Assembly: GCA_018883125.1 (NCBI GenBank)
Contig: VEQR01000019.1
Coordinates: 1 to 47,482, forward strand
Source: Candidatus Kapaibacterium sp.
GTDB lineage: Bacteria; Bacteroidota; Ignavibacteria; Kapaibacteriales; Kapaibacteriaceae
Reading direction: 5' to 3'
DNA: 47,482 nucleotides
The position numbers and the translations under genes were made by a program. The notes beneath the pieces are model-generated. The model was not told the DNA's origin and did no database searches. It saw only the letters and a list, made by a program, of their open reading frames with translations. Shown here piece after piece: positions 1 to 33,049 of the stretch. How positions within the stretch are numbered: position 1 is the first letter of the stretch; every line of letters begins with the position of its first letter.

Positions 1-2
1 AG

Positions 3-947
3 ATCTGGCCGGTGGAGTTCAACACCTACGGCCCCAACAACACGCGCATCATCACGCGTGCCGACGGCACCTCGGAAGTGGTCATCAGCGACTACCTCGG
101 CTCGGCCCGCGTAACACTCAGCAGCAGTGGGGAGCCCCTTCAAAGCTCATCGTACCACCCCTATGGCACCGAGCGCACGAGCACCGGCTCCGGAGCGCGT
201 ACCTCGTACATCGGACGGGAACATGATAACGAAAGTGACTTGGGGTTCTATGGGGTAAGACTCTACGAGCCCGAGTACGGGAGGTTCCTGAGTACGGATG
301 TGCTGTGGGGGAAATACCTGCCGCTGCAGCCGTATCAGTATGCGGGGAATGAGCCGGTGGGGCAGTTGGATAGGAATGGGAAGGACTACGATCTAATCAT
401 CGATGAAAAAACGAAGACCGCGAACGTGAAGGCAACGTTTTACGTCGATCGGAAATCGGAAGTTGCATCAAAGGCGGCCGCGGGTAAACTCAACGCTCTG
501 AATGGTACTGAAGTATCACTGAAGGGCGTCACTTACATATTGACATTCGAAGTAAAGGTGGCGCTATCGGAATCACCCAAGGAAGCAGTATTGAGCGCAA
601 AGCAGGGGCAGTATAACGAAGCTACTGGCGAACTGATAAAGGAGGGGGAGTTTGCTTCGAATAGCATCTCGACTATCGACGACGCTAGCACATCAATCAA
701 TGGCACCGCAGCTGCATCAACTGGTTCGGATGGCCGCACTATAAGTGTTCGGGAAAGTCACGCGTCAGACACGGACGTGATATTGCATGAGATACTGCAC
801 ACTTTCGGAGTCGAGCACACGAATACTGGAGTCATGACTTCGAGCATGAAAGATCCTTTCTGGTCACAGCAGATTGATCCGAAAGTGTTCAAACAGATGA
901 TCGACAAACCCCTCCACCCCAATATCAGACAAGTGATTAGAAAGTAA
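3..947 (+). CDS. Rhs-family protein, C-terminal part with metzincin-like tip (5' end outside window)
   Basis: The frame is open to the left edge of the window, so only the C-terminal part of a larger Rhs protein is present; GTG at 12 is not a real start. The first ~120 residues are the Rhs-associated core (DYLGSARVT, YIGREHDNESDLGFYG, YEPEYGRFLSTD, YQYAGNEP). After LDRNGKDY the sequence becomes unique and visibly AT-richer, as is usual for Rhs tips. Near the C-terminus the tip carries HEILHTFGVEH, a complete HExxHxxGxxH zinc motif, at about residues 259-269 counted from position 12. GVMTSSM follows and could supply the Met-turn of a metzincin. Rhs proteins are known to deliver toxic tips to competitors, so I infer a zinc-peptidase effector. 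A gene for an exported protein begins 4 nt downstream and is the candidate immunity gene. Confidence 0.85.
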   Translation: MWPVEFNTYGPNNTRIITRADGTSEVVISDYLGSARVTLSSSGEPLQSSSYHPYGTERTSTGSGARTSYIGREHDNESDLGFYGVRLYEPEYGRFLSTDVLWGKYLPLQPYQYAGNEPVGQLDRNGKDYDLIIDEKTKTANVKATFYVDRKSEVASKAAAGKLNALNGTEVSLKGVTYILTFEVKVALSESPKEAVLSAKQGQYNEATGELIKEGEFASNSISTIDDASTSINGTAAASTGSDGRTISVRESHASDTDVILHEILHTFGVEHTNTGVMTSSMKDPFWSQQIDPKVFKQMIDKPLHPNIRQVIRK

Positions 948-951
948 TGGG

Positions 952-2139
952 GTGTCGAACCTACTAACGATATTTCCGTGGCTAATGCCATTTTTAGCAC
1001 TTGCTGCATTAAATGGAAATGCGCAGCAAGGCCCAACATTTTCATCTGACCCATATTTCGGTACAGCTGTGTTGAGCACTTCGAAGGCTGTGCTCAATGA
1101 ACACGCTGATTCGGCAATGATAATCATCGAGGTATTCAATCATGATGATACAAGATTGAACTACTATCGTCTGAATGTGCGTTCCGATAGTTATCGTCCA
1201 TCTAAAGTACGGGATACTATTTCAAGACCATATCCATGGCGCACGGAGAAGCGCATCGTTCCACCGGGGGTGTATTCCGTTTCTGTAAATCAAGGTGAGT
1301 TGAGAGACTGCTATGACTGGGTTGTGTGTAAGAACATTCATGTTGAACCAGGCTCAGTTGTGAAGGTGCGATTCCAACTTCCTCCGATTCGGACATTCGA
1401 AGAAGGGTTGCCTTTGCCCAAGAGCACTATAATTCAGAGTAAGCTGCACCTGCAGAGCCTTATCCCAAAATCTGCAACTGGACAAACACGGTCATCTTTG
1501 ACTCTGCGAGTTAGAGACTCGCTTCGCGCGCCCTATCCATTTGGAGCTGTGCTCAAAACGTCCCAGGGTTCGGGGTCGAGTCTTGTTGGAAAAGTATATT
1601 TGATTGACGACACGGTAACGACTCTCAAGCTTGATCCTGGAGAGGTCAGGTTGATGATGGACTCTCGATTCCGGGCTTCGGCAGAGTTGCAGTTACCACA
1701 GGAATTTGACCTAAGTCCTGGGGATTCTGCGGTAGTTGACGTGACTCTCGGTGGCGCGTTTGTGATTGATTCTACCGTATTGTACGATGGATATCAGCGA
1801 CGTCGACAATTCTATGGCACTACTTCAGTACGTCATGAGCCAGCTGAAATCGCGTCAACTCGTGACTCAGGTGTTCTGGATCTCGAGGTTGTTGACGCGG
1901 CGACACAGTTACCCATCACGAGTGCTTATGCAAGGATATCTGAGACATCCCTTTATCGAGAGTGGATAGTGAGCAGAGGAATATCGTCGTTCCCTATTCC
2001 TACGGGTGTATACGATGTTACCTGCGATCCAACTGGCAGTGAGGGCTGCTGGTTTGTGACTCGAGAAGACGTGCTTGTGCTCCCAGGTAAGCGAACTGTT
2101 GTCCGATTTGAGATGAATATGAAACAAAGTAGTCCGTGA
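952..2139 (+). CDS. Secreted repeat protein, candidate immunity partner of Rhs tip 1
   Basis: This 395-residue protein has an N-terminal signal peptide (hydrophobic LTIFPWLMPFLALAAL, likely cleavage after NGNA). The GTG start lies 4 nt after the Rhs stop codon, and the ATG at 947 is in a frame that closes at once. Two ~40-residue segments look like copies of each other: residues ~104-144 (PPGVYSV...CYDW...VEPGSVVKVRF) and ~350-388 (PTGVYDV...CWF...VLPGKRTVVRF). This resembles PEGA or carboxypeptidase-regulatory-like beta-sandwich repeats. No enzyme motif is visible. Position and export suggest protection of the periplasm against the metzincin-like tip, but no immunity family is recognised. 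It could instead be an unrelated surface protein. Confidence 0.7.
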   Translation: MSNLLTIFPWLMPFLALAALNGNAQQGPTFSSDPYFGTAVLSTSKAVLNEHADSAMIIIEVFNHDDTRLNYYRLNVRSDSYRPSKVRDTISRPYPWRTEKRIVPPGVYSVSVNQGELRDCYDWVVCKNIHVEPGSVVKVRFQLPPIRTFEEGLPLPKSTIIQSKLHLQSLIPKSATGQTRSSLTLRVRDSLRAPYPFGAVLKTSQGSGSSLVGKVYLIDDTVTTLKLDPGEVRLMMDSRFRASAELQLPQEFDLSPGDSAVVDVTLGGAFVIDSTVLYDGYQRRRQFYGTTSVRHEPAEIASTRDSGVLDLEVVDAATQLPITSAYARISETSLYREWIVSRGISSFPIPTGVYDVTCDPTGSEGCWFVTREDVLVLPGKRTVVRFEMNMKQSSP

Positions 2140-2315
2140 ATGCTGGTTGAAGGAGTTTGGTTGATTTGCCCGTCAAGGCCGAGTCAAAGACTCGCGGCAT
2201 AGGTGGCATCTCGTGAATCAGGAATCCACGTCACGTATCGTTCTCATGCACAGGTCACGCCATGCTGCGACCCAGCATTCGGCCGTAGAGCGTGAATGTA
2301 TCGGGAATTCGCCAC
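2140..2315. other. Non-coding gap between Rhs cassettes 1 and 2
   Basis: No credible gene was found. There is a short imperfect inverted repeat (GCCGAGTC AAA GACTCGCGGC, about 2180-2200) that could form a hairpin, but no T-tract follows, so I do not call it a terminator. The stretch leads into the IS-end-like repeats at 2316. Confidence 0.5.
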
Positions 2316-2380
2316 GGTTCATTGGGCGACCACGCTGGTTAATCGGTCGACCACGCTTGGTCATTGGGCGACCACTTAGA
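2316..2380. repeat. Three 21-22 bp direct repeats resembling an IS21-family end
   Basis: Three consecutive units begin at 2316, 2337 and 2359. Their shared pattern is GGTnAATnGGnCGACCAC, for example GGTTCATTGGGCGACCAC in unit 1. On the minus strand they read GTGGTCGCCCAATGAACC, which resembles the multiple transposase-binding repeats at the ends of IS21-family elements. No transposase (istA) or helper (istB) frame is nearby. The repeats stop just before the point where Rhs-like coding sequence resumes (after the stop at 2396-2398). This fits a leftover of an insertion that cut off the 5' end of cassette 2. The IS21 assignment is by pattern only. Confidence 0.4.
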
Positions 2381-2479
2381 ATCGCCCCTGCTGGATGAAT
2401 TCCTGCATTCGCGGAAGAGACGATACCATCTGCAACCCAAAACCTGCGCATAGCGCCCAATGTTCTCAATCAAGTAAGT

Positions 2480-4333
2480 TTGGTCACGTACCCAAAGATC
2501 AACGTGACGACCACCAACACCTATAACGCCGCCGGAGCCCTGCTGCGCAGCAGAACGCAGACAGATCCTCTGTCGCTTGTGCCTCAGCCCCAGATGCGGC
2601 AGTACTACGACGAGGCGTTCAGCTACAGCCGCGGTGGTCTGATCAAGGAGAAGTACTACACGCAGGATGGTGAGTCGAGGCGCGAGACATACGGATATGA
2701 CAAAGCTGCCAGACTTACGAGCAGTTTCGAGCGGGCATGGCCTGGGAGTCCCATGTTTGGTGTCGCGTCGGATCAGACAGTGTATGAATATGATGCTGCC
2801 GGCAACCGAACCCGTGCTTTCAGAGAGACTCGAGTCAATAATGTCTACTTGCCGACGCAGCAACAACAATACTCCCACACCCCGGGCACGAACCAGCTCG
2901 AGCGTGTGTCGGATGCCACGATCATCAATGGCGCAGTGGCCGGACGTGCCACCTTTGATGACCAGCTTACCTACGACCCCGACGGTTCGATGATATCGCG
3001 TACAAAGAATCGCGCCGAAGATGGAATGCGTCAGCAAAAGATCGAGACCTTTGGGTACGATGCGTTCAATCTAATCCACGTGTACACTGTGCAGACGGCT
3101 ACCACCACGGGTGCCGAGGCCAGCTGCGCCCCCGATGCCTCGCTGGCCCCGGTGGAGCAATGGCGCTACCGCTTCGGCCCCCTTCAAGAGCGCGAGCAGA
3201 AGCGACAGCTTTTCAGCAGCGCCGATACCACCCTCGCATGGGTGTACACGCTCGTTGGTGCCGACGGCAAGCAGCTGGCCACGTACAATGGACTGCAGGG
3301 GGCTCTCTGCGGCCGCGACGGTGTGCGCCTCTGGCCGGTGGAGTTCAACACCTACGGCCCCAACAACACGCGCATCATCACGCGCGCCGATGGCACCTCG
3401 GAAGTGGTCATCAGCGACTACCTCGGCTCGGCCCGCGTAACACTCAGCAGCAGCGGAGAGCCCCTTCAAAGCTCATCGTATCACCCCTTCGGCACCGAGC
3501 GCACGAGCACCGGCTCCGGAGCCCGCACGTCCTACATCGGACGGGAACATGATAACGAAAGTGACTTGGGGTTCTATGGGGTCAGGTTGTACGAGCCTGA
3601 GTACGGGAGGTTCTTGAGCACGGATGTGTTGTGGTCGAAATACCTGCCGCTGCAGCCGTATCAGTATGCGGGGAATAGTCCGGTGATGGCGGTGGATTAT
3701 GATGGTAGGGAAGTCAGCTTCGCGTCGCTTTTAAGCACCGCGAGCTTCGATGATGACACAAGGGCGCAGGAGATTGTTGATCGTACGGTCGAAGATCTGC
3801 GATGGTTAACAGGCCTATCCTCACTAAGCGTCGGAGGAGACGGCGTGCTAACATTTGATGCGAACGAGACTGCACAGGGTGGCAGCATCGCTGCACGAAC
3901 TCTTGTAACTGGTCTCATTGCCTCGCCGGAGATACTTGATGTTGTGAGTTCAGGTGTCAATGAAGCCGATCCAGCTAAGAACACAGTGGGTCTGAACTAT
4001 GACCAGACTGCATCGTTCATCGCAGGAACGAGTTCCAATCTGGACAATCGTACTATGGGGTTCGGAACAACGTTCCTTCATGAGGCACTGCATACACCTA
4101 TGGGCGGAGGACTGGACGATGGTGGCGCAGGTACGCCCGGACCTGTTGAGAACACCGTCAATGTTATCCGTTCGCAGATGTGTGAACCCTTAGGTCAGCG
4201 ACTGTTATATGGCGCAATTCGAGTGCACGGCGTGCCCACGATCCCCTTCAGCGCGGCAAGTCTGACGACGATTCAAGAGGGAAAGCAACCTGTCAGTTCC
4301 TATGTCCGACTGCCGAGTGAGGAGGATAAGTGA
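2480..4333 (+). CDS. Rhs protein fragment, cassette 2, with HExxH tip
   Basis: This is a 617-residue Rhs piece. YD repeats (YGYDKAARLTS, YEYDAAGNRT, LTYDPDGSM) occupy the first ~200 residues, followed by the Rhs core (DYLGSARVT to YQYAGNSP). Its tip starts after VDYDGREVS. The tip contains LHEALHTPMGGG, with H534, E535 and H538 forming an HExxH zinc-binding pattern. A metzincin third ligand is not obvious. There is no signal peptide. The frame is open back to a stop at 2396-2398, and the TTG at 2480 is a poor start, so the 5' end looks lost, probably at the IS-like repeats. About 345 bp of its core (3331-3676) are nearly identical to 5-350. The end overlaps the next gene by 4 nt. Confidence 0.85.
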   Translation: MVTYPKINVTTTNTYNAAGALLRSRTQTDPLSLVPQPQMRQYYDEAFSYSRGGLIKEKYYTQDGESRRETYGYDKAARLTSSFERAWPGSPMFGVASDQTVYEYDAAGNRTRAFRETRVNNVYLPTQQQQYSHTPGTNQLERVSDATIINGAVAGRATFDDQLTYDPDGSMISRTKNRAEDGMRQQKIETFGYDAFNLIHVYTVQTATTTGAEASCAPDASLAPVEQWRYRFGPLQEREQKRQLFSSADTTLAWVYTLVGADGKQLATYNGLQGALCGRDGVRLWPVEFNTYGPNNTRIITRADGTSEVVISDYLGSARVTLSSSGEPLQSSSYHPFGTERTSTGSGARTSYIGREHDNESDLGFYGVRLYEPEYGRFLSTDVLWSKYLPLQPYQYAGNSPVMAVDYDGREVSFASLLSTASFDDDTRAQEIVDRTVEDLRWLTGLSSLSVGGDGVLTFDANETAQGGSIAARTLVTGLIASPEILDVVSSGVNEADPAKNTVGLNYDQTASFIAGTSSNLDNRTMGFGTTFLHEALHTPMGGGLDDGGAGTPGPVENTVNVIRSQMCEPLGQRLLYGAIRVHGVPTIPFSAASLTTIQEGKQPVSSYVRLPSEEDK

Positions 4334-4923
4334 GATACGGATTGGAGTGCCAAGCTGTCCCCATTAGCCGTTGGCGAGCCGGAGACGTGTTTTTGCTGGT
4401 ACTGCTCGCAGCAGCGGTAGTAACTGGATGTGCAAGTTCGAATAGCGGAGGAGAACGGCGGCGGTTTACGTTGTCACATGTCTTGAGTGACACCGCCCTT
4501 CAGCGTCGTTGTTTCGGGACCGTCGTTGCCATCGATAGCCTGTACGTATGCGAGACAGAATCCAATGCAGCATTGTGTGGATTGTTTCAGCTGCCGTCCG
4601 GCGTTAGATTGTCCAAGCATGTGTCGTCGGATGACACGACCGGAGGTGGTGGATTGCGAGAGCTGGCACTGAGAGAATACGTGCGCCGTACGTTTAGAAA
4701 AGGTGATGGTTATTGCCGGGACAGTATCTCTGCTGGTAGATACTCGTATGTGGCTGTGTTTGACACTTACTTTGACAGACAGATCGTCAGGGCAGCAGTG
4801 TACCGAATTGTGCAAGATGACGGTGCGTTGACGATCGACCGTCAGTCGATGCTGGTAGCCGTCGTCGTTTGGGATGCGGTCGATGGGAGTCCTCATAAGA
4901 TCGTTGGTCGGCTTGTCAGGTAG
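4330..4923 (+). CDS. Predicted lipoprotein, candidate immunity partner of Rhs tip 2
   Basis: This 197-residue protein has an N-terminal hydrophobic stretch and a lipobox (AVVTGC, Cys about residue 36), so it should be a lipoprotein in the envelope. The GTG start overlaps the Rhs stop by 4 nt (GTGA) and has a strong GGAGG 4 nt upstream. The mature part has four Cys residues (CFG, CETE, CGLF, YCRD) and no family I recognise. Tight coupling to the toxin-like tip is the only evidence for an immunity role. The DNA is AT-richer than the Rhs core. Confidence 0.7.
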   Translation: MRYGLECQAVPISRWRAGDVFLLVLLAAAVVTGCASSNSGGERRRFTLSHVLSDTALQRRCFGTVVAIDSLYVCETESNAALCGLFQLPSGVRLSKHVSSDDTTGGGGLRELALREYVRRTFRKGDGYCRDSISAGRYSYVAVFDTYFDRQIVRAAVYRIVQDDGALTIDRQSMLVAVVVWDAVDGSPHKIVGRLVR

Positions 4924-5192
4924 GCATCACCCTCGATAACGTAGCACGCGTGATCGAATCGCGCTCCTGCACGGCCTATGGCACCGAGCGCACGAGCACC
5001 GGCTCCGGCGCGCGTACCTCGTACATCGGACGGGAACATGATAACGAAAGTGACTTGGGGTTCTATGGGGTCAGGTTGTACGAGCCCGAGTATGGGAGGT
5101 TCTTGAGTACGGATGTGCTGTGGGGGGAATACCTGCCGCTGCAGCCGTATCAGTATGCGGGGAATGAGCCGGTGATGGCGCTGGATAGGAAT
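4923..5192 (+). repeat. Rhs core homology segment of cassette 3 (mosaic)
   Basis: The segment begins directly at the stop codon of the preceding gene. Its first ~50 nt (4926-4975, encoding ITLDNVARVIESRS) closely match the start of cassette 4 (6292-6341). From 4976 on it follows cassette 1 (161 onward) almost base for base up to about 5192. The change of affinity inside one short segment points to recombination between core copies. Confidence 0.8.
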
Positions 5193-5732
5193 GGAGACTC
5201 GATCATCGTGTTGCAGGACTGGGAGGGGGCACATGGCGCTGGTCATTCGGCGGTGCTCATTGGCGGGGATGACAAAGGATGGAAGCTGTACTCGAAGAAT
5301 GGGGGAGAGTATGTGGCGTTTGGGGCGTCGAAGGATCCACAAGCGGGTGGTGATCTGGAGAGCTTTAAGACTCTGTCCGACTTTCAGATGTCTGCGAGAG
5401 ATCCGGGACAGCTTCAAGGCAGATACGATAATGCTCTTCTGATTCCAACGTCCGCGGAAGATGACAAGAAGGCCGGAGCGGCCGCTGAGAAGCAAGTAAA
5501 GAGCAACTATCTACTTGCGGGAGCGAGTTGCATCACCGTTGTGCATGATGCGCTCGAGGCTGCGGGTAAACTACCGGTGTTAGGCAGTCTGTTTGGGAGC
5601 CCTGTCAGAGGTCTGTCGCCAGTCCCCAATGTGGCGTTTAAGCAGATTAACGCTATGCCCGAGTCGCAGAATGTTGATTCGCGAGTCATCTCGCCTGAAC
5701 GCAACGATCCAGAAAGGAAGGAGGATAAGTGA
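4950..5732 (+). CDS. Rhs orphan tip, cassette 3, with H/C peptidase-like signature
   Basis: A short Rhs core piece (TAYGTERTS to YQYAGNEP, about residues 8-78) leads into a unique tip. The tip has GAGHSAVLIGGDDKGW (His99) and later AGASCITVVHDALEAAG (Cys194). His before Cys is the order found in circularly permuted papain-fold enzymes of the NlpC/P60-LRAT group, and GHSAVLIG...YSKNG is a form I associate with Rhs tips in Bacteroidota. I infer a cysteine peptidase or amidase. No signal peptide or proper gene start is present. GTG at 4950 is the first candidate start, but the frame is open through the core remnant from 4923. This looks like a silent orphan cassette. The end overlaps the next gene by 4 nt. 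Confidence 0.75.
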   Translation: MIESRSCTAYGTERTSTGSGARTSYIGREHDNESDLGFYGVRLYEPEYGRFLSTDVLWGEYLPLQPYQYAGNEPVMALDRNGDSIIVLQDWEGAHGAGHSAVLIGGDDKGWKLYSKNGGEYVAFGASKDPQAGGDLESFKTLSDFQMSARDPGQLQGRYDNALLIPTSAEDDKKAGAAAEKQVKSNYLLAGASCITVVHDALEAAGKLPVLGSLFGSPVRGLSPVPNVAFKQINAMPESQNVDSRVISPERNDPERKEDK

Positions 5733-6268
5733 GGTCGCTATTAATTGCGGGTGCAATCCTGGTCGCATGTGCCGGCCTGATTTACCTTCTTTTCATGTCT
5801 CCGTATGCGTTCACGATTCTGGACAAGTACGGTCCGAGCGAGTCGATACGTGAATCAAGGGAACGTGGTGTCTACCTTTTTCGGTACAAGGTATTGAATC
5901 CAGATCACTACATCAACGACTCTACGGAACTTCACATAAAGGAAGCGTGGATTGAGCGTCCATGGCGCGTTGGGACATTCTATCATCAGACGCTGCAGAA
6001 CTATGATGGAACATTTCTTCTCTGTGTCATCGATTCAACAACAAGAGATAGTAAGTCCATAAAGCTTGCACCGAAGCTGCACGTCAATGGTCGTTACTTC
6101 GGAGGATTTGGGTACACTGAGTACCAAAAGTTGTTTGTCAGTTCTTACCAGTATGGCTACGGCACGCCACCGGACCGCTACGATTTCCCCATCGTCATCG
6201 GTGATTTTACAAGACCAGACACCGTCGGAATTCTGCACCTCGTGTTTGAAGATGGCCGTCCACGGTAA
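5729..6268 (+). CDS. Membrane-anchored protein, candidate immunity partner of Rhs tip 3
   Basis: This 179-residue protein has one N-terminal hydrophobic segment (about residues 3-25, LLIAGAILVACAGLIYLLF), then a soluble domain rich in Tyr and Phe. It is predicted to be anchored in the inner membrane with the rest in the periplasm. The GTG start overlaps the tip's stop codon by 4 nt and follows GGAGG, the same 14-bp junction as in cassette 2. I do not recognise the family. Confidence 0.7.
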   Translation: MRSLLIAGAILVACAGLIYLLFMSPYAFTILDKYGPSESIRESRERGVYLFRYKVLNPDHYINDSTELHIKEAWIERPWRVGTFYHQTLQNYDGTFLLCVIDSTTRDSKSIKLAPKLHVNGRYFGGFGYTEYQKLFVSSYQYGYGTPPDRYDFPIVIGDFTRPDTVGILHLVFEDGRPR

Positions 6269-6535
6269 TCAACGTAGCCACCTCGGCTCTGCGCTCATCA
6301 CACTCGATAACGCAGCACGCGTGATCGAATCACGCTCCTAGACGGCCTTCGGTGACGAACTCACCTCCAGCGGCGCAGATGCGCGCACTAGCTATATTGG
6401 ACGTGAGACAGATAATGAGAGTGACTTGGGGTATTATGGAGTAAGGATGTACGAACCGCTCTACGGCCGCTTCCTGAGTACCGATCCGCTGTGGTCAAAG
6501 TACCTGCCCCTGCAGCCGTATCAGTATGCGGGGAA
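6269..6535 (+). repeat. Rhs core homology segment of cassette 4, with in-frame TAG
   Basis: The segment starts right after the preceding stop codon. It encodes HLGSALITLDNAARVIESRS, then TAG at 6339-6341, then TAFGDELTSSGADARTSYIGRE. Cassette 3 has TGC at the matching codon, and Rhs cores usually have Tyr (TAC/TAT), so the TAG looks like a point mutation. It is more diverged from copies 1-3 than they are from each other. Confidence 0.75.
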
Positions 6536-7124
6536 TCAGCCGATCAGTCTACTAGACGACGGCGGCAAGTGGGTTCAGGCTGTCGATGCCAAGGCTCAGG
6601 AAGCCGTAAGGAACTCTGTACCGGAGAAGTTCAGAGATTTCGTCGTCTTCAATGATGGTATCCTTGATGTCGGCCGGATCAAAGAGGGGGCTCAGGGCCA
6701 AGACGTCAACAGCAACATATCCGTCCTTAGTAGGCTCGCTGAGAATGACAATACTATCGACGTAGCAGTGTCGGACGAGGTCACGGCATTAGACAAGTCG
6801 GGAGACCGCATCAGTGCTCATTTCTCCGACTTCGATCGACCCGGTGAGCGTATCAACGGACTGACGTTGGCGCCCCGATCAGATCAGAAGTCATCGGGAC
6901 TATCCGACGGAGTACCGTTCTCAACGACTGGAAACATTCAGGTTGTGATCCGTGCATCAGGTGAGTCGAAGCAGTCAAAGGGAGTAACGGCTGCGCACGA
7001 GTTGTTTGCACATGCACGATTCATTCTGCTATGCAGAGTAGGCAAGGCGGCAAGTGCTCGGGAGAGTGACCCTGCCGTCCAGAAGGCTATCAAACGTGCG
7101 GAACGCGAGGCCCAATCACCATGA
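6342..7124 (+). CDS. Rhs orphan tip, cassette 4, with HExxxH signature
   Basis: The frame is open from just after the in-frame TAG (6339-6341) but has no good start; the TTG at 6426 lies inside the core. Core residues (TSYIGRETDNESDLGYYG, YGRFLSTDPLW, YQYAGNQP) precede a tip beginning LDDGGKWVQ. The tip contains TAAHELFAHARF at 6990-7025. HELFAH has the HExxxH spacing and resembles HELYGH-type motifs in Rhs tips, so a metal-dependent hydrolase is possible. The lack of a start and the nonsense codon argue that it is not expressed as it stands. The end overlaps the next gene by 4 nt (ATGA). Confidence 0.65.
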   Translation, partial: TAFGDELTSSGADARTSYIGRETDNESDLGYYGVRMYEPLYGRFLSTDPLWSKYLPLQPYQYAGNQPISLLDDGGKWVQAVDAKAQEAVRNSVPEKFRDFVVFNDGILDVGRIKEGAQGQDVNSNISVLSRLAENDNTIDVAVSDEVTALDKSGDRISAHFSDFDRPGERINGLTLAPRSDQKSSGLSDGVPFSTTGNIQVVIRASGESKQSKGVTAAHELFAHARFILLCRVGKAASARESDPAVQKAIKRAEREAQSP

Positions 7125-7891
7125 GATCCATGATACAAGGTGCTCTGCTGCTCACGTGCGGAGTATGCGCGATCCTCGGCGCGCAAGGGTGTAGCAAAAG
7201 AAGTGACCGACCGTACAGCGGCGAATACAACACTGCTGGCGAGAGTGTCGATAGCGCGGCAGTCGCCACACAAGCGTTCGAGAGCATCGATTCGGTTGAT
7301 CTGGATGCTCGGTTTCTTTGGCGTGATGGAGCTCTTTACGCAGAACTGGTTGTGCGCAATCAATCAAACCAAGAGTATGCTATGCTCCCGAGTTTTATGC
7401 GACGGGGTGCGAACGCCGCAGGTAAATATCGACTGGTGTCAGACCCTGGTTCGCTGGGTATCGACCTGACGTGGAGCAAAGCAATCCCAATTCCCGAGAT
7501 ACTCGAACTAAACCGTGTATGGCCTCAGTACGAAGAAAGTATGGTCGCTCAGTTCGTTCTTGTTCCCGCTCGGACATCGATTCTGATTGTAACGGAAATG
7601 GGTGATATGAAGCGCTCCAGAAATAGCCGGAACGACACGCAAGCAGTATTGATTACCTCGATCCCCTTGTGGCGAAGAGGTGATGTGCAATTGGAACGTC
7701 TCTTCTCCAATGGTCTCGCTACGGGTAATAGTCTGTATCGGGTTGTTGCGGACACGGCCAAGCCCTTTCAATCGCACATCGTCGGTTACGCCAGGAATAC
7801 TCCCCTTACCTATGACGATTACCTACTTCTGCAAAGCGAGAATCTTGGAAGTCGTATGAAGAAAAGACGTTGGTTCTATCTTCCTCATTAG
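7121..7891 (+). CDS. Predicted lipoprotein, candidate immunity partner of Rhs tip 4
   Basis: This 256-residue protein has a signal sequence ending in a lipobox (LGAQGC, Cys about residue 24), so a lipid-anchored envelope protein is predicted. ATG overlaps the tip stop as ATGA. The mature domain is predicted beta-rich (LDARFLWRDGALYAELVVRN) and no known family is recognised. As in the other cassettes, the immunity role is inferred from position and from matching localisation. Confidence 0.7.
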   Translation: MRSMIQGALLLTCGVCAILGAQGCSKRSDRPYSGEYNTAGESVDSAAVATQAFESIDSVDLDARFLWRDGALYAELVVRNQSNQEYAMLPSFMRRGANAAGKYRLVSDPGSLGIDLTWSKAIPIPEILELNRVWPQYEESMVAQFVLVPARTSILIVTEMGDMKRSRNSRNDTQAVLITSIPLWRRGDVQLERLFSNGLATGNSLYRVVADTAKPFQSHIVGYARNTPLTYDDYLLLQSENLGSRMKKRRWFYLPH

Positions 7892-10764: not shown

Positions 10765-10772
10765 CAAAGTTA
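10765..10772 (-). promoter_or_regulatory. -7 promoter element of the desaturase gene
   Basis: On the minus strand the sequence is TAACTTTG, an exact TAnnTTTG match, followed by CCCT and the ATG at 10760. The spacing puts the transcript start at or next to the A of ATG. The TA comes from the last copy of the 7-bp tandem repeat. Confidence 0.7.
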
Positions 10773-10853
10773 CGGAGGACGGATTACGGATTACGGATTA
10801 CGGAGGACGGATTACGGATTACGGATTACGGAGGACGGATTACGGATTACGGA
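10770..10853. repeat. 7-bp tandem repeat, 12 units (TTACGGA / GGACGGA)
   Basis: Twelve consecutive 7-bp units run without a break. TTACGGA appears nine times and GGACGGA at units 2, 6 and 10, a higher-order spacing of four. On the minus strand the unit reads TCCGTAA and runs directly into the desaturase -7 element, so the -33 region lies entirely inside the array. Confidence 0.95.
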
Positions 10854-10860
10854 GGCACCC

Positions 10861-10992
10861 GTCATCCCGGCGGAGGCCGGGATCCAGCTTTGCATATCGT
10901 CTTTTGGCATGGGCCCCGCTTTCGCAGGGATGACGCATGGATCCCCGCTTTCGCGGGGATGACGCATGGGCCCCGGCCTTCGCCGGGGCGAC
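10861..10992. repeat. Cluster of four REP-like palindromes
   Basis: Four hairpin-forming units of ~25 bp occur at 10861-10885, 10911-10934, 10939-10963 and 10968-10992. All are variants of GTCATCCCCGCnnnnGCGGGGATCC, in alternating orientation. The same motif recurs at 44606-44630. This is a dispersed palindromic repeat family in a spacer, with no coding function. Confidence 0.85.
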
Positions 10993-11001
10993 GACGGAAA
11001 C

Positions 11002-22913: not shown

Positions 22914-24749
22914 CTAGGCATTCCGCATGAACATGCGAAGCATAGCCAGACGCCAAATCAGCAAAGCGTTCGAATCATCGCCGCGACGATAGGCATCGAG
23001 AAGCGCGTCCAGCCGGCGCAGATCAATGTATGGCTCAAGGTCCTTCCAGGATCCCTCAAGCGTATACGACAGCGCCCCTCGTAGCCACTTGATATGCCCT
23101 GGCGTGATGAAGCCGGTCTTGTCCTTTCGGTCGAGGATCTGGTCCGGGACGATCCCACGCATCGCGGCGCGCAGAACGCGTTTTGTCTCACCGCGATAGA
23201 CCTTGTGTTGCGTTGGCATCCTGAAGGAAAGATCAACAAGCCGATGGTCCAGAAAAGGCACGCGAGACTCGATACTGAAGGCCATGGAGTTGATGTCCTC
23301 CGTATGCAGCAGAGTTGGCAGCAGGGTAACGCGAAGCAGGTTATGCAGGAATCCGTTCAGCCGAGATCCGCTGACCGATGAAAGCGTCAACGGAATGGAA
23401 CGGGGCTCCTGTCGCATCAACCACGGATAGGTATGGGCGAGCTCAATCTCGTAGAGCGACTGTTCGGACCGCGCTGCCGTGAGCAATGCCTTGGCCAGCA
23501 CGTTCAAACGACGCTTCAAAGGATAGGACTGGCGTTGTGCGTGTGCATGGAGTTCGGCATGCGCCTCGAGAATGCGTCCGCTCGAGAGCTTTTCTGCGAT
23601 GACGCGATAGAGCGAGTGCATATATCCGCCGAGCATCTCATCGGAGCCCTGCCCATCGAGGACAACCTTCACTCCGTGGCTGGCTGCAAGCCCCATGACA
23701 AAGTACTGGGAGACGTACGACGACGATGGCATCGGTGCATCCATGAGGTGCACGATACGCTGCAGCGCCTCGGACACATCCTCATCGGTGGGCGATATCT
23801 CGCTGGAGATGATCTGCGGGTAGCGCTCGAGAAGGTGTCGGATGTACGGCCGCTCGTCCACCGTTCCGGGGCCGGTGTAGTAGGCAGTAAAAGCTCGGAC
23901 CTCGTGCTCAGCGGTCGAAGAGGCCAACACGCCCGCGATCGATGTTGAATCAAGTCCGCCGCTAAGGCACACGCCCATCGGCACGTCTCTGCGTGATGTG
24001 AGCTTGACGGAATCGATAAACGTTTCTCGAAATCGGTGCACGTTATCCTGAAAGCTCAGTGAGGTATCAACCGATGTGTCAACCTCGGCGTACTGCCAGA
24101 TGCGCAGTTCGCCATTACTCAGAAGCGCGTTGTGCGCCGCTGGTAGGGCTTTTATGTCGGTGAAGTAGGTTTCATCCCAATGGTGCATCCAGCCGAGATA
24201 GAGTCCACGTGTTACCTGCGCCTCATTCATGCCCCCTCGGTCAAGGGGCATCCCACGCAGCGCTTTGATCTCCGAGGCAAAGTAAAAGCTGCCGTTACGG
24301 TAGCTGTAATGATAGGGCTTGATACCAAAGCGGTCTCGCGAACAGAATAGGGACTGCTCAGCCCCATTCCAGATGGCAAAGGCCCACATGCCGATAAAGC
24401 GTTCAACCGCATCGGCACCCCAGTAGTGGTAGGCCTTGAGCACCACCTCCGTGTCTCCGGTGGTGTCGAAATGATATCCTGCGGCCGACAATTCACTGCG
24501 GAGCTCAACGTAGTTATAGACTTCGCCGTTGAAGGTGATCGTTAACTCACCAAACGACATTGGCTGGTGGGAAGCAGCGGAAAGGTCGATGATGCTGAGG
24601 CGATTATGGCCAAGCCACACAGGCGCCGAACAGAATGTTCCGCTGTTGTCCGGACCTCGGTGCGACGTGGAGCGCAGCATGCGCGAACCCAGATCGGCCA
24701 AGGTGTCGGACGTCAGAGTTGAATCAATGATTCCTGCTATACCGCACAT
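22914..24749 (-). CDS. asnB: Asparagine synthase (glutamine-hydrolysing)
   Basis: This 611-residue enzyme has the N-terminal class II glutaminase (MCGIAGIID, catalytic Cys2) and the C-terminal synthetase with the PP-loop LSGGLDSTS. The usual reaction is aspartate + glutamine + ATP to asparagine. In polysaccharide loci such as this one, AsnB-type proteins can instead amidate uronic-acid sugars. It is convergent with the LytTR gene and divergent from the heparinase-fold gene. A TAnnTTTG element sits 4 nt before the ATG. Confidence 0.92.
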   Translation of the reverse strand: MCGIAGIIDSTLTSDTLADLGSRMLRSTSHRGPDNSGTFCSAPVWLGHNRLSIIDLSAASHQPMSFGELTITFNGEVYNYVELRSELSAAGYHFDTTGDTEVVLKAYHYWGADAVERFIGMWAFAIWNGAEQSLFCSRDRFGIKPYHYSYRNGSFYFASEIKALRGMPLDRGGMNEAQVTRGLYLGWMHHWDETYFTDIKALPAAHNALLSNGELRIWQYAEVDTSVDTSLSFQDNVHRFRETFIDSVKLTSRRDVPMGVCLSGGLDSTSIAGVLASSTAEHEVRAFTAYYTGPGTVDERPYIRHLLERYPQIISSEISPTDEDVSEALQRIVHLMDAPMPSSSYVSQYFVMGLAASHGVKVVLDGQGSDEMLGGYMHSLYRVIAEKLSSGRILEAHAELHAHAQRQSYPLKRRLNVLAKALLTAARSEQSLYEIELAHTYPWLMRQEPRSIPLTLSSVSGSRLNGFLHNLLRVTLLPTLLHTEDINSMAFSIESRVPFLDHRLVDLSFRMPTQHKVYRGETKRVLRAAMRGIVPDQILDRKDKTGFITPGHIKWLRGALSYTLEGSWKDLEPYIDLRRLDALLDAYRRGDDSNALLIWRLAMLRMFMRNA

Positions 24750-24753
24750 GGCT

Positions 24754-24761
24754 CAAATCTA
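24754..24761 (-). promoter_or_regulatory. -7 promoter element of asnB
   Basis: TAGATTTG on the minus strand, then AGCC and ATG at 24749, a leaderless arrangement. On the other strand TAAATTG (24768-24774) precedes the heparinase-fold gene and may be a weaker divergent element. Confidence 0.65.
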
Positions 24762-24779
24762 CGGTGGTAAATTGCCACA

Positions 24780-26516
24780 ATGAATCTTTCGTGGACGCTT
24801 AGAATCCTGCGCGGACCGATGCGCCCCTTTCTCGTTGGGAAGGTGCTTCATCGTCTTCGGGAGATCGTTGAAACACGACGCGCTCTCAACCGAATGCCGA
24901 CAGCGCTGTCGGAAGGCCGTTCTGTGCGCTCGAATATTGTGCCCCTTCCATCGGCACAATGGTTCGCCGTGAACGGTAATGCGGTGCTTTCCTTTGCACG
25001 ACGCATGCGCTCCGGACGCGTGGAGGCATATAACGTAGGGCGTTGGGTGGTTGGCGCCGATGACCCCGCCGAGGTCGATGTGCGATCCGTGCATGAGCTC
25101 AGCCGCATGCATCACTGGTGTGCCTATGCGCTGGCGGCGCATCTCGACCGTGAGAACCGCGATGCATGGTGTGAGCTGCTCGAGCGGGAGATCCGGACGT
25201 TCACAACTTCGTACCCGATATCGTCCAGTGTGCATTGGCAGTTTCCCATGGGCACGGGCATACGACTTCACTCAATGCTGGTTGCATGGGACTGGGCGCG
25301 GCGTAGCGGATGGGAAAGTCCGGACGGAGACCGTCTTGTTGCTGCGGCGGCAATCGATCATGCTCTACTCACAGCAGCACAGAGAGAATCGCGTGGCGGT
25401 CTTTCAACGTCCCACTACGCTGCAAATCTGCTCGGCATACTTGCCGCAGGATGCTACATCACCGGTCACCCAAAGGTTGAGCGGTGGAAGAAGTTGGCAA
25501 CACATGAGCTTTGCCGCGAGATCATGCGTCAGATCCTGCCCGATGGAATGGCCAACGAAGGCAGCACGGGCTATCATCGTCAGGTTACCGACACCTTTGT
25601 TCATGCTATGATGATCTGCAAGGGGGCTAATGGAAAGCTGCCTCTTTCGTCAGAGCAGCATCGGCGTCTGGCGCTGGCCGTTGAGCGGTGCCGTCAGCTC
25701 ATTGATCTTGGAATGCCATTGATCGGTGATAATGATGACGGGTTGTCGATGAAGCTCGCCGGCTTCGCTCCGGATATGTCGTACCTCTTTGATGTGTCGT
25801 CCCGACTCGGACTCACCACTTCCGGTGACACTCTCGATCCATCAATGCCGGATTTTGGACTCTACACCATTGGTGATGGCCGCATACAATGTGCGCTGCG
25901 GAATGGTCCGGTGGGCCAGTTCGGCAAGGGTGGGCATGCCCACAACGACCAGAACTCGGTTGTTGTACGCGTGGACGGTGAACCACTCATTGTTGACCCC
26001 GGCTCGGCCGTGTATACGTCGAATCTGTCAACGCGAAATGCTCAGCGATCTGTTTCGTGCCATTCAACAATGTGGTGGGCGGGCCGTGAGCAGGCTGAGT
26101 ATCCCGCGGGAGAGCAAGGCCTGTTTTGGCTCCTTGATGATATGCTGGAGCGGCATGTTGCAAAAACAGAAACATCCATTTCGGCGCGGGTAACGCACCG
26201 TTTATTGGGGTTGCACGAAAGGACACTCCTGCTCGATGAGGGCATGCTCAAAGGCCATGACCGGTGCACCACAGCAAGCAACATCCCGGTTGAGACAGTC
26301 TTTGTCTTCGACCATCGCGCCAGGGTGCGCATGATCAGTTCACGTGCCGTGGAGCTTGCCACATCGGGCACTACTGTTATCCTTGAGTGGTCAGGGGGCG
26401 AAGGCCGCATCGAGCCCGTTGAGGTATCTCAACGCTTCGCCGAAACACTTCTCGCGCAGTGTCTGCGGATTGACGGGTCCGAACTCTCGTGGACCATTCG
26501 CCACAGTGGCACGTAA
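24780..26516 (+). CDS. Heparinase II/III-family protein
   Basis: This 578-residue protein has a helical (alpha/alpha toroid) N-terminal half and a C-terminal heparinase II/III domain with FGKGGHAHNDQNSVVV at about residue 380 and PLIVDPGSAVYTSN. No signal peptide is visible, which differs from secreted lyases. Such cytoplasmic or periplasmic members are frequent in exopolysaccharide clusters, where they may trim or modify uronic-acid-containing glycans. It is followed by the flippase gene with its own promoter. Confidence 0.85.
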   Translation: MNLSWTLRILRGPMRPFLVGKVLHRLREIVETRRALNRMPTALSEGRSVRSNIVPLPSAQWFAVNGNAVLSFARRMRSGRVEAYNVGRWVVGADDPAEVDVRSVHELSRMHHWCAYALAAHLDRENRDAWCELLEREIRTFTTSYPISSSVHWQFPMGTGIRLHSMLVAWDWARRSGWESPDGDRLVAAAAIDHALLTAAQRESRGGLSTSHYAANLLGILAAGCYITGHPKVERWKKLATHELCREIMRQILPDGMANEGSTGYHRQVTDTFVHAMMICKGANGKLPLSSEQHRRLALAVERCRQLIDLGMPLIGDNDDGLSMKLAGFAPDMSYLFDVSSRLGLTTSGDTLDPSMPDFGLYTIGDGRIQCALRNGPVGQFGKGGHAHNDQNSVVVRVDGEPLIVDPGSAVYTSNLSTRNAQRSVSCHSTMWWAGREQAEYPAGEQGLFWLLDDMLERHVAKTETSISARVTHRLLGLHERTLLLDEGMLKGHDRCTTASNIPVETVFVFDHRARVRMISSRAVELATSGTTVILEWSGGEGRIEPVEVSQRFAETLLAQCLRIDGSELSWTIRHSGT

Positions 26517-26534
26517 CCGAGCGGAGCGCCGCGC

Positions 26535-26542
26535 TATCTTTG
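26535..26542 (+). promoter_or_regulatory. -7 promoter element of the flippase operon
   Basis: TATCTTTG, then CCGC and ATG at 26547. It is an exact consensus match with leaderless spacing, and it probably drives the five overlapping genes that follow. Confidence 0.7.
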
Positions 26543-26546
26543 CCGC

Positions 26547-27851
26547 ATGAAGGTTACGGCCCATTTGGGAGCCATATCGTGGTCAATGGCGGACAAGCTG
26601 ATGTACGTCGGCTATGGCTTCGTCCAGTTTCTGCAGATCGCTGCGCTCCCCAAGGAAGTGTACGGCGTTTTTACTCTGCTTGTGGCTCTGAACACGTGGA
26701 TCATGATGGTTTCTGACGGTTCGGCGCTGGCGGGCGTGATCCAATTTGGCGTTGATGTCGAGGATCGGCCGCGCACCAACATGCTGGCGATGATCATCCA
26801 CACGCTCGTCGTCATGGGGTCCTCCGGGCTGATGTTTCTCCTTAGTGAGCCCCTTACCGACCTGTTTCGCGTCCGCGAGTTTACTCTGGTTGCACAGTGG
26901 TTGCCGCTGTATTGTTTGCTGACCCTGCCGAGGATGTTCTGTCTGAAGATTCTGTACCGTGATATGCGGATGCGTGATCTGTTCATTGCCGATGCAGTGT
27001 GGTTTGGCGTGCGAACATCAATGACCATCCTAGCAATCTCCAACGGGCAGCTGAAAACGTTCGAGGATATTCTGTTGATCGACCTGGCGGGTATGGCGGC
27101 AAGTTCGCTCGTGGCTGTGCTGATGACGCGCAAGGACCTGGTGTTTTCGCGTCTGGGAAAGATGAATCTGCGGACCTATCTCGGGTATGGACTGCCGCTC
27201 GCGGCTGCCACGGCCCTCAATGCGGCGCCGCGTCTGCTAGATGTGTATGTGATCGCTGCATTCTTTGATGTGGGCGTTGTGGGCGTTTACAATCCGGCAA
27301 AGAACTTGTATCGGATCTTCGAACAGGGCTTTGATGCGGTCACCACACTCATGTATCCGGCTGCAGTCCGCATGCATGCGCAGCATCGGACGCAGGACCT
27401 GCAGACACTGGTAACCAAGGCCGTGAGCTTTACGCTTGTGCCCATCATTGTGATCGTTGCGATACTGGAGTTGGGGGCAAGTAACCTCATCATCACGTTC
27501 CTGAAGCCTGAGTATGCGGCAGCGGTGGGACATTTTGATGTGTTGACACTTTCGGCGCTTATCATGCCATTTGGACTTCTTGGCTCGATCATCCTTGCCA
27601 CCGGACAAAGCGCCTCCATACTCAAGTACAGTGCTGCAGGAGTTATCTCCTCATTTGCCGTCCTATTCCTGGTTGGATATTCCGGGCAGGCTCATCTGAT
27701 TGGTCTGGGCCTTGTTGCAAACACACTAGTGGTCAGTATCCTCTACACGGCGCACGTGCAACGAGATCTGCATCTCCCTCTTAGCGCCTTCTCGCGCGTA
27801 TTGCCCGATGCACGCAACATGCTGCGTCGATTTCGTGGAGGAGCATCCTAA
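26547..27851 (+). CDS. Polysaccharide flippase (Wzx/MOP superfamily)
   Basis: This 434-residue integral-membrane protein has about twelve hydrophobic segments in the pattern of Wzx-type lipid-linked oligosaccharide flippases. Characteristic stretches are YGLPLAAATALNAAPRLLDVYVI and VGVYNPAKNLYR. It would move undecaprenyl-linked repeat units to the periplasm. It is the first gene of an operon with 1-4 nt overlaps (TAATG with the next gene). Confidence 0.85.
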   Translation: MKVTAHLGAISWSMADKLMYVGYGFVQFLQIAALPKEVYGVFTLLVALNTWIMMVSDGSALAGVIQFGVDVEDRPRTNMLAMIIHTLVVMGSSGLMFLLSEPLTDLFRVREFTLVAQWLPLYCLLTLPRMFCLKILYRDMRMRDLFIADAVWFGVRTSMTILAISNGQLKTFEDILLIDLAGMAASSLVAVLMTRKDLVFSRLGKMNLRTYLGYGLPLAAATALNAAPRLLDVYVIAAFFDVGVVGVYNPAKNLYRIFEQGFDAVTTLMYPAAVRMHAQHRTQDLQTLVTKAVSFTLVPIIVIVAILELGASNLIITFLKPEYAAAVGHFDVLTLSALIMPFGLLGSIILATGQSASILKYSAAGVISSFAVLFLVGYSGQAHLIGLGLVANTLVVSILYTAHVQRDLHLPLSAFSRVLPDARNMLRRFRGGAS

Positions 27852-28705
27852 TGTGGGTTCACCTGATCATGGCACGGGGCTTTGTACGACGTCGCCTGCC
27901 TTTGTGGACGCTCCACGTGATTCTTGTTGCGGCAATTGCATCCACTTGCTGCCTAGGTGCTCTTCTGCTCTGGGATGCTGATTTCAAGATTGGCGAAAAG
28001 TCCGAGGGTTTTTCTATCGACATTGTTCTCCGTGAACGTGTATCTGGGGAGCAGACATTCGATCTCGTGTCGATGCTCAACCGCAGGCCCGACGTCCACA
28101 GCTGCAACCACCTCGATCGGCAGAACGTATGGCGCATCTTCCAGTCCGAGATTGGCGTTGAGTCCGAGGGCATGGCCGAGATCGCCGCTCTTCCGGAAGT
28201 CATCCGCATTCACTTCCGTCGTGAGTTCGTCACCAACCAGCACATCCATGATGTTGCGAGATCACTCAAGCGCCGAATGCCAGACCGAATCGAATCGGTC
28301 ATGGTCCCAACTTTGGCGATCAATGACGTGGAGCGGGAACGCAGACAACTCGAAAACAACCTCTTTTTTGTTGCCATTAGTGGAGTTCTGTTCGTCATCA
28401 TCCTTGCCCTTGTGACTGGCAGGAGCATCCGCATCCACGGTCAGGCCGCTATTGCCTCGCGAGCAGGACGTGCTGCGCGATGGATGCGCCTCGGACCGTT
28501 TCTTGGTATGACCGCCGGGACTGTGATAGGCCTATTTCTCACGTGTGTCGGTGTTTTGCTTATTGCCCCTTGGCTTTTCCTTGACCTGTTAGAACCGTAC
28601 GCAATGGTTGCCATTGCCGGGACGTTTGCTCCAGTGCTGCTGGTGACTCTTGTGCATGCATTCATGGTCATCGTGCCATCGACTCGACAACGGGGCTGGC
28701 AGTGA
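27851..28705 (+). CDS. FtsX-like membrane protein
   Basis: This 284-residue protein has one N-terminal helix, an extracytoplasmic domain of ~130 residues and three C-terminal helices, the FtsX layout. The domain has VWRIFQSEIGVESEGMAEIAALPEVIRIHF, partly like the F...G...LP pattern of FtsX. FtsX works with the ATPase FtsE to activate peptidoglycan hydrolases such as EnvC-AmiA/B during division. No ftsE lies next to it, but an EnvC-like gene is at 38057-39253. The start is TAATG-coupled to the flippase. Confidence 0.55.
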   Translation: MWVHLIMARGFVRRRLPLWTLHVILVAAIASTCCLGALLLWDADFKIGEKSEGFSIDIVLRERVSGEQTFDLVSMLNRRPDVHSCNHLDRQNVWRIFQSEIGVESEGMAEIAALPEVIRIHFRREFVTNQHIHDVARSLKRRMPDRIESVMVPTLAINDVERERRQLENNLFFVAISGVLFVIILALVTGRSIRIHGQAAIASRAGRAARWMRLGPFLGMTAGTVIGLFLTCVGVLLIAPWLFLDLLEPYAMVAIAGTFAPVLLVTLVHAFMVIVPSTRQRGWQ

Positions 28706-29784
28706 GAACTCTTGACCGATATGTAGTCCGGCAGTTTGTGCTGACATTCATGTTCTCACTACTGGCGCTGACGATGATCTTTGTGATCGTTGACCTGATC
28801 GATGGTCTCGACGAGTTTCTGGACAACAAGGCAACGACCGAGGTTGTTGTTCGATACTACATTGCCTTTATCCCTGAGATCCTTGAACTCATCACGCCCA
28901 TAGCGCTCATGCTGAGTGGTCTGTTTTCAGTGGGACGCTTGAGCACGCTGAATGAGATCACAGCGATGAAGTCGGGTGGCATAAGCGCGGCACGGATTCT
29001 GCTGCCGATCCTTGCCGTGAGCCTTTTCATTAGTGGCGGCCAGCTCTACTTCAACGGATGGATCGTTCCCAAGGCAGCAGCGCAGAAGCGCGATCTTGAG
29101 CGTCGCTATCTCGGATCAAGTCTCGGCGTCAGCATTATGAGTGATTTGGCGTTTCGTCAAACGCCCACAATGAACATTGGTATCGAACGATACGATGCAG
29201 ATGCACGCATCGGCTCAGGAGTGACGGTTGAGGAGTTCGGTTCGGTGACGTCTCCACGGCTGCGATGGAGAATGGACATTGACCGGATGTCGTGGGATTC
29301 ATCTCGCTCGAGATGGGTCGGGCGCGACGCTGTGCAGCGAACCTTTACCGACGATACGGTTCGCATTGTCGAGCTTGACACGGTTGATGTGCCCTTTACG
29401 ATCGGCCACGATCAGATCATGCGTCTGCAGCAAAGCACCGATGAGATGACCTTTCCAGAGCAGGCGGAGTATCTGGACATGCTGAAGAAAGGGGGCAAGC
29501 AGACCCGCGCAGCGGAGATCGATCTCGCCGGACAATGGGCCTTTCCCTTTGTGAATATCATCGTGGTGATGATCACTGTGCCATTTGCCTCAGTGCGACG
29601 TCGAGGCGGTTTGGCGGCCAATATCACAGCAGCTCTGGTGATCGCCGTAAGCTACATTGCCTTTACGAAGATCAGTCAGGCAATCGGCGTTAATTCCGAC
29701 TTCTCTCCCGCGCTCGTTGCTTGGAGTGCGAACGCGGTGTTCTCGATCATAGCCGTCATCATCTTCATCCGGTATCACTCGTGA
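28702..29784 (+). CDS. lptG: LptF/LptG-family lipopolysaccharide export permease
   Basis: This 360-residue permease begins LDRYVVRQFVLTFMFSLLAL. It has three N-terminal helices, a periplasmic beta-jellyroll-like domain (~150 residues) and three C-terminal helices, the standard YjgP/YjgQ layout. The segment NEITAMKSGGISAARIL is a family hallmark. With LptB and LptC it extracts lipopolysaccharide from the inner membrane. It is fused translationally to its neighbours (GTGA and TGATG overlaps). The choice of G over F is tentative. Confidence 0.85.
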   Translation: MRTLDRYVVRQFVLTFMFSLLALTMIFVIVDLIDGLDEFLDNKATTEVVVRYYIAFIPEILELITPIALMLSGLFSVGRLSTLNEITAMKSGGISAARILLPILAVSLFISGGQLYFNGWIVPKAAAQKRDLERRYLGSSLGVSIMSDLAFRQTPTMNIGIERYDADARIGSGVTVEEFGSVTSPRLRWRMDIDRMSWDSSRSRWVGRDAVQRTFTDDTVRIVELDTVDVPFTIGHDQIMRLQQSTDEMTFPEQAEYLDMLKKGGKQTRAAEIDLAGQWAFPFVNIIVVMITVPFASVRRRGGLAANITAALVIAVSYIAFTKISQAIGVNSDFSPALVAWSANAVFSIIAVIIFIRYHS

Positions 29785-33029: not shown

Positions 33030-33038
33030 TAATTCCCG

Positions 33039-33046
33039 TATTTTTG
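33039..33046 (+). promoter_or_regulatory. -7 element inside the operon, before the haloperoxidase-like gene
   Basis: TATTTTTG, then TTC and ATG at 33050. It could allow separate leaderless transcription of the last gene. It also argues for ATG 33050 over GTG 33026 as the start. Confidence 0.45.
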
Positions 33047-33049
33047 TTC

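What the first reader, a model, noticed from the sequence alone, without database searches (positions are those of the whole stretch)
1..7891. Four-cassette Rhs array in which every tip looks like a peptidase and every partner is exported
Seen: four units in a row, each of Rhs core, unique tip and a tightly coupled small gene, with almost no intergenic DNA (the core of cassettes 3 and 4 starts at the preceding stop codon). The tips carry HExxHxxGxxH, HExxH, H...C and HExxxH signatures. Known: Rhs tips are polymorphic toxins with adjacent immunity genes. Inferred: a one-target arsenal aimed at the periplasm or cell wall, with no nuclease tip among the four.
Basis: partly seen in the sequence, partly recalled or inferred. 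Interest (0 to 1): 0.82.

Follow-up and report, generated by a model that had tools for sequence, protein, structure and literature searches.

The report
Reserve rack of swappable Rhs toxins
The start of this DNA piece holds four spare toxin-plus-antidote modules of a well-known bacterial weapon (Rhs); most of the toxin ends look like protein- or envelope-cutting enzymes with antidotes sent outside the cell membrane, so the layout is ordinary but several of the toxin ends are undescribed.

Summary
In detail: four units of Rhs core fragment, unrelated tip and downstream small gene lie in 3-7891. They are best read as orphan Rhs-CT/RhsI modules, a known arrangement. Units 3 and 4 start inside core fragments after the previous stop; unit 4 has an in-frame TAG (6339-6341); unit 1 is cut off by the contig end; no full-length Rhs is in the assembly. 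A complete relative (G014) shows the full layout: one 2479-aa Rhs, then seven such modules. 'Every tip a peptidase' is only partly supported. Tip 1 is metzincin-like. Tip 4 belongs to a conserved HExxxH family. Tip 2 has only the string HEALH and no homologues. Tip 3 conserves H and C; only a distant relative weakly matches Lnb_N. Exported partners are real but usual here (60 of 73). 'One target' fails: this genome's second array has a non-exported partner, and relatives mix envelope-type and cytosol-type tips. Possible news: undescribed zinc-peptidase tip families paired with lipoprotein partners in an Ignavibacteria-type lineage.

The parts
3..380 (+). Rhs core fragment of cassette 1, cut by the contig start
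   Evidence: TIGR03696 E 4.8e-15; core repeat
381..947 (+). Tip 1, metzincin-like zinc peptidase (HEILHTFGVEH, GVMTSSM)
   Evidence: family of Rhs tips L084, L086, L089 and fragment L088; Pfam/PDB matches almost all metzincins though each is weak
952..2139 (+). Partner 1, 395 aa, Sec signal peptide, C-terminal CarboxypepD_reg-like region
   Evidence: partner of a tip-1 homologue (L086) is a CarbopepD_reg_2 lipoprotein, E 7e-9
2399..3706 (+). Rhs core fragment of cassette 2 (longest, about 430 codons; possible TTG start 2480)
   Evidence: matches residues 1869-2279 of the G014 Rhs
3707..4333 (+). Tip 2 (HEALH), no homologues found
4330..4923 (+). Partner 2, lipoprotein (VVTGC lipobox), GTGA overlap with tip 2
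4923..5195 (+). Rhs core fragment of cassette 3, begins at the stop of partner 2
5196..5732 (+). Tip 3, conserved GHxAVLIG ... SC; putative cysteine hydrolase, fold unproven
   Evidence: alignment A2: H17 and C112 invariant; homologues only behind Rhs cores
5729..6268 (+). Partner 3, N-terminal membrane anchor
   Evidence: co-occurs with tip 3
6276..6566 (+). Rhs core fragment of cassette 4 with in-frame TAG at 6339-6341
6567..7124 (+). Tip 4, HExxxH (HELFAH) zinc-peptidase-like family with an invariant downstream Glu
   Evidence: 13 loci in 11 genomes; alignment A1
7121..7891 (+). Partner 4, lipoprotein (LGAQGC lipobox)
   Evidence: profile of partners of homologous tips finds it, E 1.6e-5

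Best explanation
This is an array of orphan Rhs C-terminal toxin / immunity modules. A full-length Rhs protein (not in this assembly) would be exported with its current tip. The headless modules keep a short stretch of core homologous to the main gene, so recombination in the core can swap a new tip together with its immunity gene onto the main gene. Until then the orphan tips are probably silent, while their immunity genes can be translated from their own starts. Tips 1 and 4 (probably also 2) act as zinc peptidases, and tip 3 as a cysteine hydrolase or acyl-transfer enzyme, in the periplasm or envelope of target cells. The lipoprotein, membrane-anchored or secreted partners neutralise them there. 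Shown here: anatomy, core homology, conservation of candidate catalytic residues (tips 1, 3, 4), co-variation of tips and partners (units 3 and 4), export signals. Inferred: catalysis, substrate, toxicity, immunity, swapping, delivery.
For: Core repeats with unrelated tips and partners. Complete genome G014 has a 2479-aa Rhs followed by seven core-fragment/tip/partner units. The tip-4 family is the tip of a full-length 2568-aa Rhs in G019 but an orphan in G000 and G014, so modules move between main gene and array. Unit 4 has a stop inside its core frame; units 3 and 4 begin after the preceding stop. Tip homologues are almost always behind Rhs cores. Zinc motifs in 20 of 77 tips against 0.94 expected. 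18 of 20 partners of zinc-motif tips score as exported, whereas several tips in G017 have non-exported partners, an internal contrast. Published precedents: orphan cdiA-CT/cdiI and rhs modules without initiation signals (PMC3150448); orphan Rhs toxin activated by recombination with the main gene (PMC3967940); toxin cassettes and Tox-MPTase1-5 on RHS proteins (PMC3482391).
Against: No full-length Rhs in this MAG (the assembly breaks at the repeat). No peptidase profile passes its cut-off for any window tip. Structure models were unusable (mean pLDDT 43 and 36). Tip 2 has no family. The export caller is crude: it also flags 15 of 31 control genes.
Confidence: 0.75

Rival explanations
1. Immunity bank: the tips are baggage and the selected function is the set of exported partners that protect against neighbours' toxins.
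For: Partners have their own starts overlapping the tip stops; orphan immunity is expressed in E. coli EC93 (PMC3150448); one tip-4 relative carries a frame break (G013:C23, 1 TGA).
Against: Tips 1, 3 and 4 keep their candidate catalytic residues across relatives, which baggage would lose.
Confidence: 0.15
2. Independent expressed effectors: each unit is translated from internal starts and is secreted or acts without a main Rhs.
For: Unit 2 keeps a long core and a possible TTG start at 2480; candidate GTG 4950 and TTG 6426.
Against: No export signal on units 2-4; TAG in the unit 4 core; promoter-like sites no more than chance (6 against 5.8).
Confidence: 0.06
3. Enzyme tips aimed at other targets (eukaryotic or extracellular proteins), with partners as self-protection during Sec export.
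For: Metzincin-type enzymes often act on extracellular proteins (general knowledge); Sec-type Rhs heads in relatives.
Against: Tip-specific co-varying partners and cassette swapping fit competition between related bacteria (PMC3482391).
Confidence: 0.08

Closest known systems
Orphan rhs-CT/rhsI modules (Salmonella, Dickeya; PMC3967940, PMC3150448)
   Same: core fragment + variable C-terminus + linked small gene in tandem, lacking start signals, downstream of a main rhs in a complete relative
   Different: tips mostly zinc-peptidase/envelope types with lipoprotein partners; heads in relatives have Sec signals, and the two scanned full-length proteins show no PAAR match
Tox-MPTase1-5 and other peptidase toxins of Zhang et al. 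2012 (PMC3482391)
   Same: HExxH tips on RHS proteins, Bacteroidetes/Chlorobi included
   Different: no models of those families were available to test identity; tip 4 has HExxxH rather than HExxH
Tox-JAB-1 with Imm65 lipoprotein (PMC3482391)
   Same: RHS tip in Bacteroidetes paired with a lipobox immunity protein; JAMM-like tips occur in relatives here (L038, L040-L042)
   Different: none of the four window tips is JAB-like; that paper called Imm65 the only lipoprotein immunity in its collection, whereas lipobox partners are common here
Metzincins (M10/M12 group)
   Same: HExxHxxGxxH and a Met-turn-like GVMTSSM in tip 1
   Different: very low sequence similarity, on an Rhs tip

Membership tests
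Orphan Rhs-CT/RhsI module array | fragment of Rhs core homologous to a main rhs gene before each tip | tested here: met
Orphan Rhs-CT/RhsI module array | small partner gene directly downstream, co-varying with the tip | tested here: met
   for tip 3; for tip 4; tips 1 and 2 untested for lack of close relatives
Orphan Rhs-CT/RhsI module array | toxin fragment lacks its own start and export signal | tested here: met
   units 3 and 4; unit 2 ambiguous (TTG 2480); unit 1 cut by contig end
Orphan Rhs-CT/RhsI module array | full-length main rhs upstream in the same locus | tested here: inconclusive
   absent from the assembly, contig ends in the repeat; present in complete relative G014
Orphan Rhs-CT/RhsI module array | same tip found on a full-length Rhs elsewhere | tested here: met
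   tip-4 family on the 2568-aa Rhs of G019 (L051)
Orphan Rhs-CT/RhsI module array | toxicity neutralised by the partner | not testable with these tools
   needs expression assays
Metzincin peptidase (tip 1) | HExxHxxGxxH zinc motif conserved in the family | tested here: met
   H136, E137, H140, G143 invariant, last H in 4 of 5 (D in the fifth)
Metzincin peptidase (tip 1) | fold / significant profile match | tested here: inconclusive
   best Pfam E 0.001, best PDB E 0.02, nearly all hits metzincins; model pLDDT 43
Zinc peptidase (tip 4) | HExxH or HExxxH plus downstream acidic ligand conserved | tested here: met
   H144, E145, E179 invariant; HExxxH in six of eight and HExxH in two
Lnb_N / permuted NlpC-P60-like hydrolase (tip 3) | profile match | tested here: not met
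   no Pfam hit for tip 3; only a distant look-alike tip (L054) hits Lnb_N, E 0.0019, below cut-off, and tip 3's profile finds that tip at E 0.32 only
Peptidase (tip 2) | conserved catalytic residues in a family | tested here: inconclusive
   no homologues in 123 order and 395 phylum genomes

The most novel reading that the evidence does not exclude
An Ignavibacteria-type lineage has built its Rhs armoury mainly around envelope-acting hydrolases: several undescribed zinc-peptidase tip families (including HExxxH with a downstream Glu, and a metzincin type) are each matched by a dedicated lipoprotein or anchored inhibitor. This would be an uncatalogued class of periplasmic protease toxin and protease-inhibitor pairs delivered by Sec-exported Rhs.
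Probability: 0.4. Interest if true: 0.55.

Novelty: new member of a known kind. Interest (0 to 1): 0.36.

Why it matters
The layout is textbook Rhs orphan modules, but in a poorly studied, mostly uncultured group. If the tips are active they are new periplasmic protease toxins with natural lipoprotein inhibitors, and the tip-partner pairs sort by compartment. That makes the question of how Sec-exported Rhs proteins deliver toxins to the periplasm of another diderm cell testable.

Tried and rejected
RHS_repeat family search of the own genome found nothing; the Rhs_assc_core profile and the core protein did. PDB sequence searches with tips 1-4 gave no useful hit, except that a profile of the tip-1 family ranks metzincins. 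Viral contigs have no tip-3 relative; plasmids no tip-1 relative. Weak tip-2 hits in the phylum are spurious: ordinary proteins without Rhs core. The tip-1 hit L087 is an unrelated iron-sulfur protein and the L088 tip fragment lies apart from its core. The sub-threshold reprolysin matches of tip 1 are not taken as membership. Recoding of the TAG in unit 4 was not pursued: orphan decay explains it.

Full report
WHAT IS THERE. The window is the whole of contig C141 of a 2.9-Mb, 199-contig genome, so position 1 is a contig end. The nearest named relative is Ignavibacteria bacterium UBA2333 (L036); its contig has the same length (6583 bases) and the same cassettes as G013:C23, a same-family genome. 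Four matches to the Rhs-associated core (TIGR03696) are each followed by a different tip and a small gene: core 3-380, tip 381-947, partner 952-2139; core 2399-3706, tip 3707-4333, partner 4330-4923; core 4923-5195, tip 5196-5732, partner 5729-6268; core 6276-6566, tip 6567-7124, partner 7121-7891. The cores are 220-nt repeats at 70-94% identity. In units 2-4 the stop of the tip and the start of the partner overlap by four bases. Units 2 and 3 share an identical 14-base junction GGAGGATAAGTGAG at 4321-4334 and 5720-5733, expected 0.02 times by chance.

HEADLESS MODULES. Core homology of units 3 and 4 begins at 4923 and 6276, next to the stops of the preceding partners, and the same 42-base core sequence (four variable positions) opens both. 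Unit 4 has an in-frame TAG at 6339-6341. Unit 2 keeps about 430 codons of core. The own genome has no full-length Rhs: a 2479-aa relative finds only the C-terminal core fragments here and a few on contig C66. In the complete relative G014 a 2479-aa Rhs is followed by seven core/tip/partner units. In G019 the tip-4 family sits on a full-length 2568-aa Rhs (L051), while it is an orphan in G000 and G014. This is the published anatomy of orphan CDI/Rhs modules: fragments without initiation signals, each with its immunity gene (PMC3150448), activated by recombination with the main gene in Salmonella (PMC3967940).

THE TIPS. Tip 1: HEILHTFGVEH with GVMTSSM after it. Homologues in the phylum (L084, L086, L089; fragment L088) lie behind or near Rhs cores; H, E, H, G are invariant. 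No Pfam match passes its cut-off, but three of five members hit metzincin families, and nearly all PDB hits of the family profile are metzincins, best E 0.023. Tip 2: only the string HEALH; no homologue in 123 genomes of the order or 395 of the phylum. Tip 3: four-member alignment with invariant His in GHxAVLIG and Cys in SCxxVV; homologues only behind Rhs. A distant look-alike (L054) hits Lnb_N at E 0.0019; the tip itself hits nothing. A cysteine hydrolase of permuted NlpC/P60 type is my inference, and it need not be a peptidase. Tip 4: HELFAH; 13 matches in 11 of 123 genomes of the order, the ones read being behind Rhs cores. H, E and a later Glu are invariant, with HExxxH in six and HExxH in two of eight aligned members. 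Two AlphaFold runs without alignments were unusable.

THE PARTNERS. Partner 1 has a Sec signal and a C-terminal region like the CarboxypepD_reg domain of TonB receptors. The partner of the tip-1 homologue in L086 is a lipoprotein with that domain (PF13715, E 7e-9), though direct similarity between the two partners is not significant. Partners 2 and 4 have lipoboxes, partner 3 a membrane anchor. Tip 3 and partner 3 occur side by side in G000, G014 (twice) and G052; the only other partner match is a weak one in G116 and the only other tip match is divergent (G037). A profile of partners of other tip-4 members finds partner 4 at E 1.6e-5.

CENSUS AND CONTROLS. In 77 core-tip units from 20 genomes of the order, 20 tips carry HExxH/HExxxH against 0.94 in shuffles. 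60 of 73 partners score as exported, against 15 of 31 control genes by the same crude caller (Fisher p = 0.0008); 18 of 20 for zinc-motif tips. Relatives also carry YkuD-like tips (E 5e-5), JAMM-like VHSHPN tips, C..C..HxLLDH tips, hydrophobic pore-like tips and, mostly in G017, tips with non-exported partners. The own genome's second array (C66, L039) has a HELVH tip and a CGTC..HALLDH tip with exported partners, and one tip with a non-exported partner. So the window's four are a mild over-representation of a clade-wide bias (P of about 0.04-0.06 for three zinc motifs in four; about 0.45 for four exported partners), not a one-target arsenal.

MECHANISM. Full-length Rhs in G019 and G017 begin with Sec signal peptides, and the two full-length proteins scanned (G014, G019) show no PAAR match. 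A Sec-exported toxin crosses its own periplasm, so exported partners are needed there as well as in sister cells under attack. How such proteins leave the producer and enter a neighbour was not tested. Zhang et al. (PMC3482391) describe Tox-MPTase1-5 on RHS proteins, L,D-peptidase tips with secreted immunity and Tox-JAB-1 with the lipoprotein Imm65, which they called the only lipoprotein immunity in their collection; the lineage here has many lipobox partners.

VERDICT. Real, correctly seen, and of a known kind. Layout and logic are standard orphan Rhs modules. What may be new is the set of zinc-peptidase tip families and their lipoprotein partners.

Noticed in passing
window 4321-4334 and 5720-5733: Identical 14-base sequence GGAGGATAAGTGAG at the tip-partner junctions of units 2 and 3, whose tips and partners are otherwise unrelated; possibly a second recombination joint or a shared ribosome-binding site.
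   Followed up: partly
window 2322-2375: Three copies of TYGGBCGACCAC spaced 21 bases between partner 1 and core 2; role unknown.
   Followed up: no
L039 (G000:C66:1-4992): Second Rhs module array of the same genome with HELVH, CGTC..HALLDH and one tip with a non-exported partner; one core broken by a stop.
   Followed up: partly
L037/L038 (G014:C1:2488000-2520000): Complete array: 2479-aa Rhs and seven modules, with two tips of the HELxGH family and two of the H..C family in the same array. The main Rhs frame has no evident in-frame signal peptide, unlike G019 and G017.
   Followed up: partly
window 10770-10867: Tandem TTACGGA-type heptamer repeat followed at 10851-11000 by inverted copies of a CGTCATCCC..TTCGCGGGGATGACG element.
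   Followed up: no
window 22914-34357: Gene run with asparagine synthase, heparinase II/III-like protein, polysaccharide flippase, LptF/LptG, FG-GAP/UnbV and PAP2 proteins; looks like surface polysaccharide export, not part of the Rhs array.
   Followed up: no
L052:2820-3779 and L040:5460-6476: Within the tip-4 family most members have HExxxH but these two have HExxH, a spacing change inside one family.
   Followed up: no
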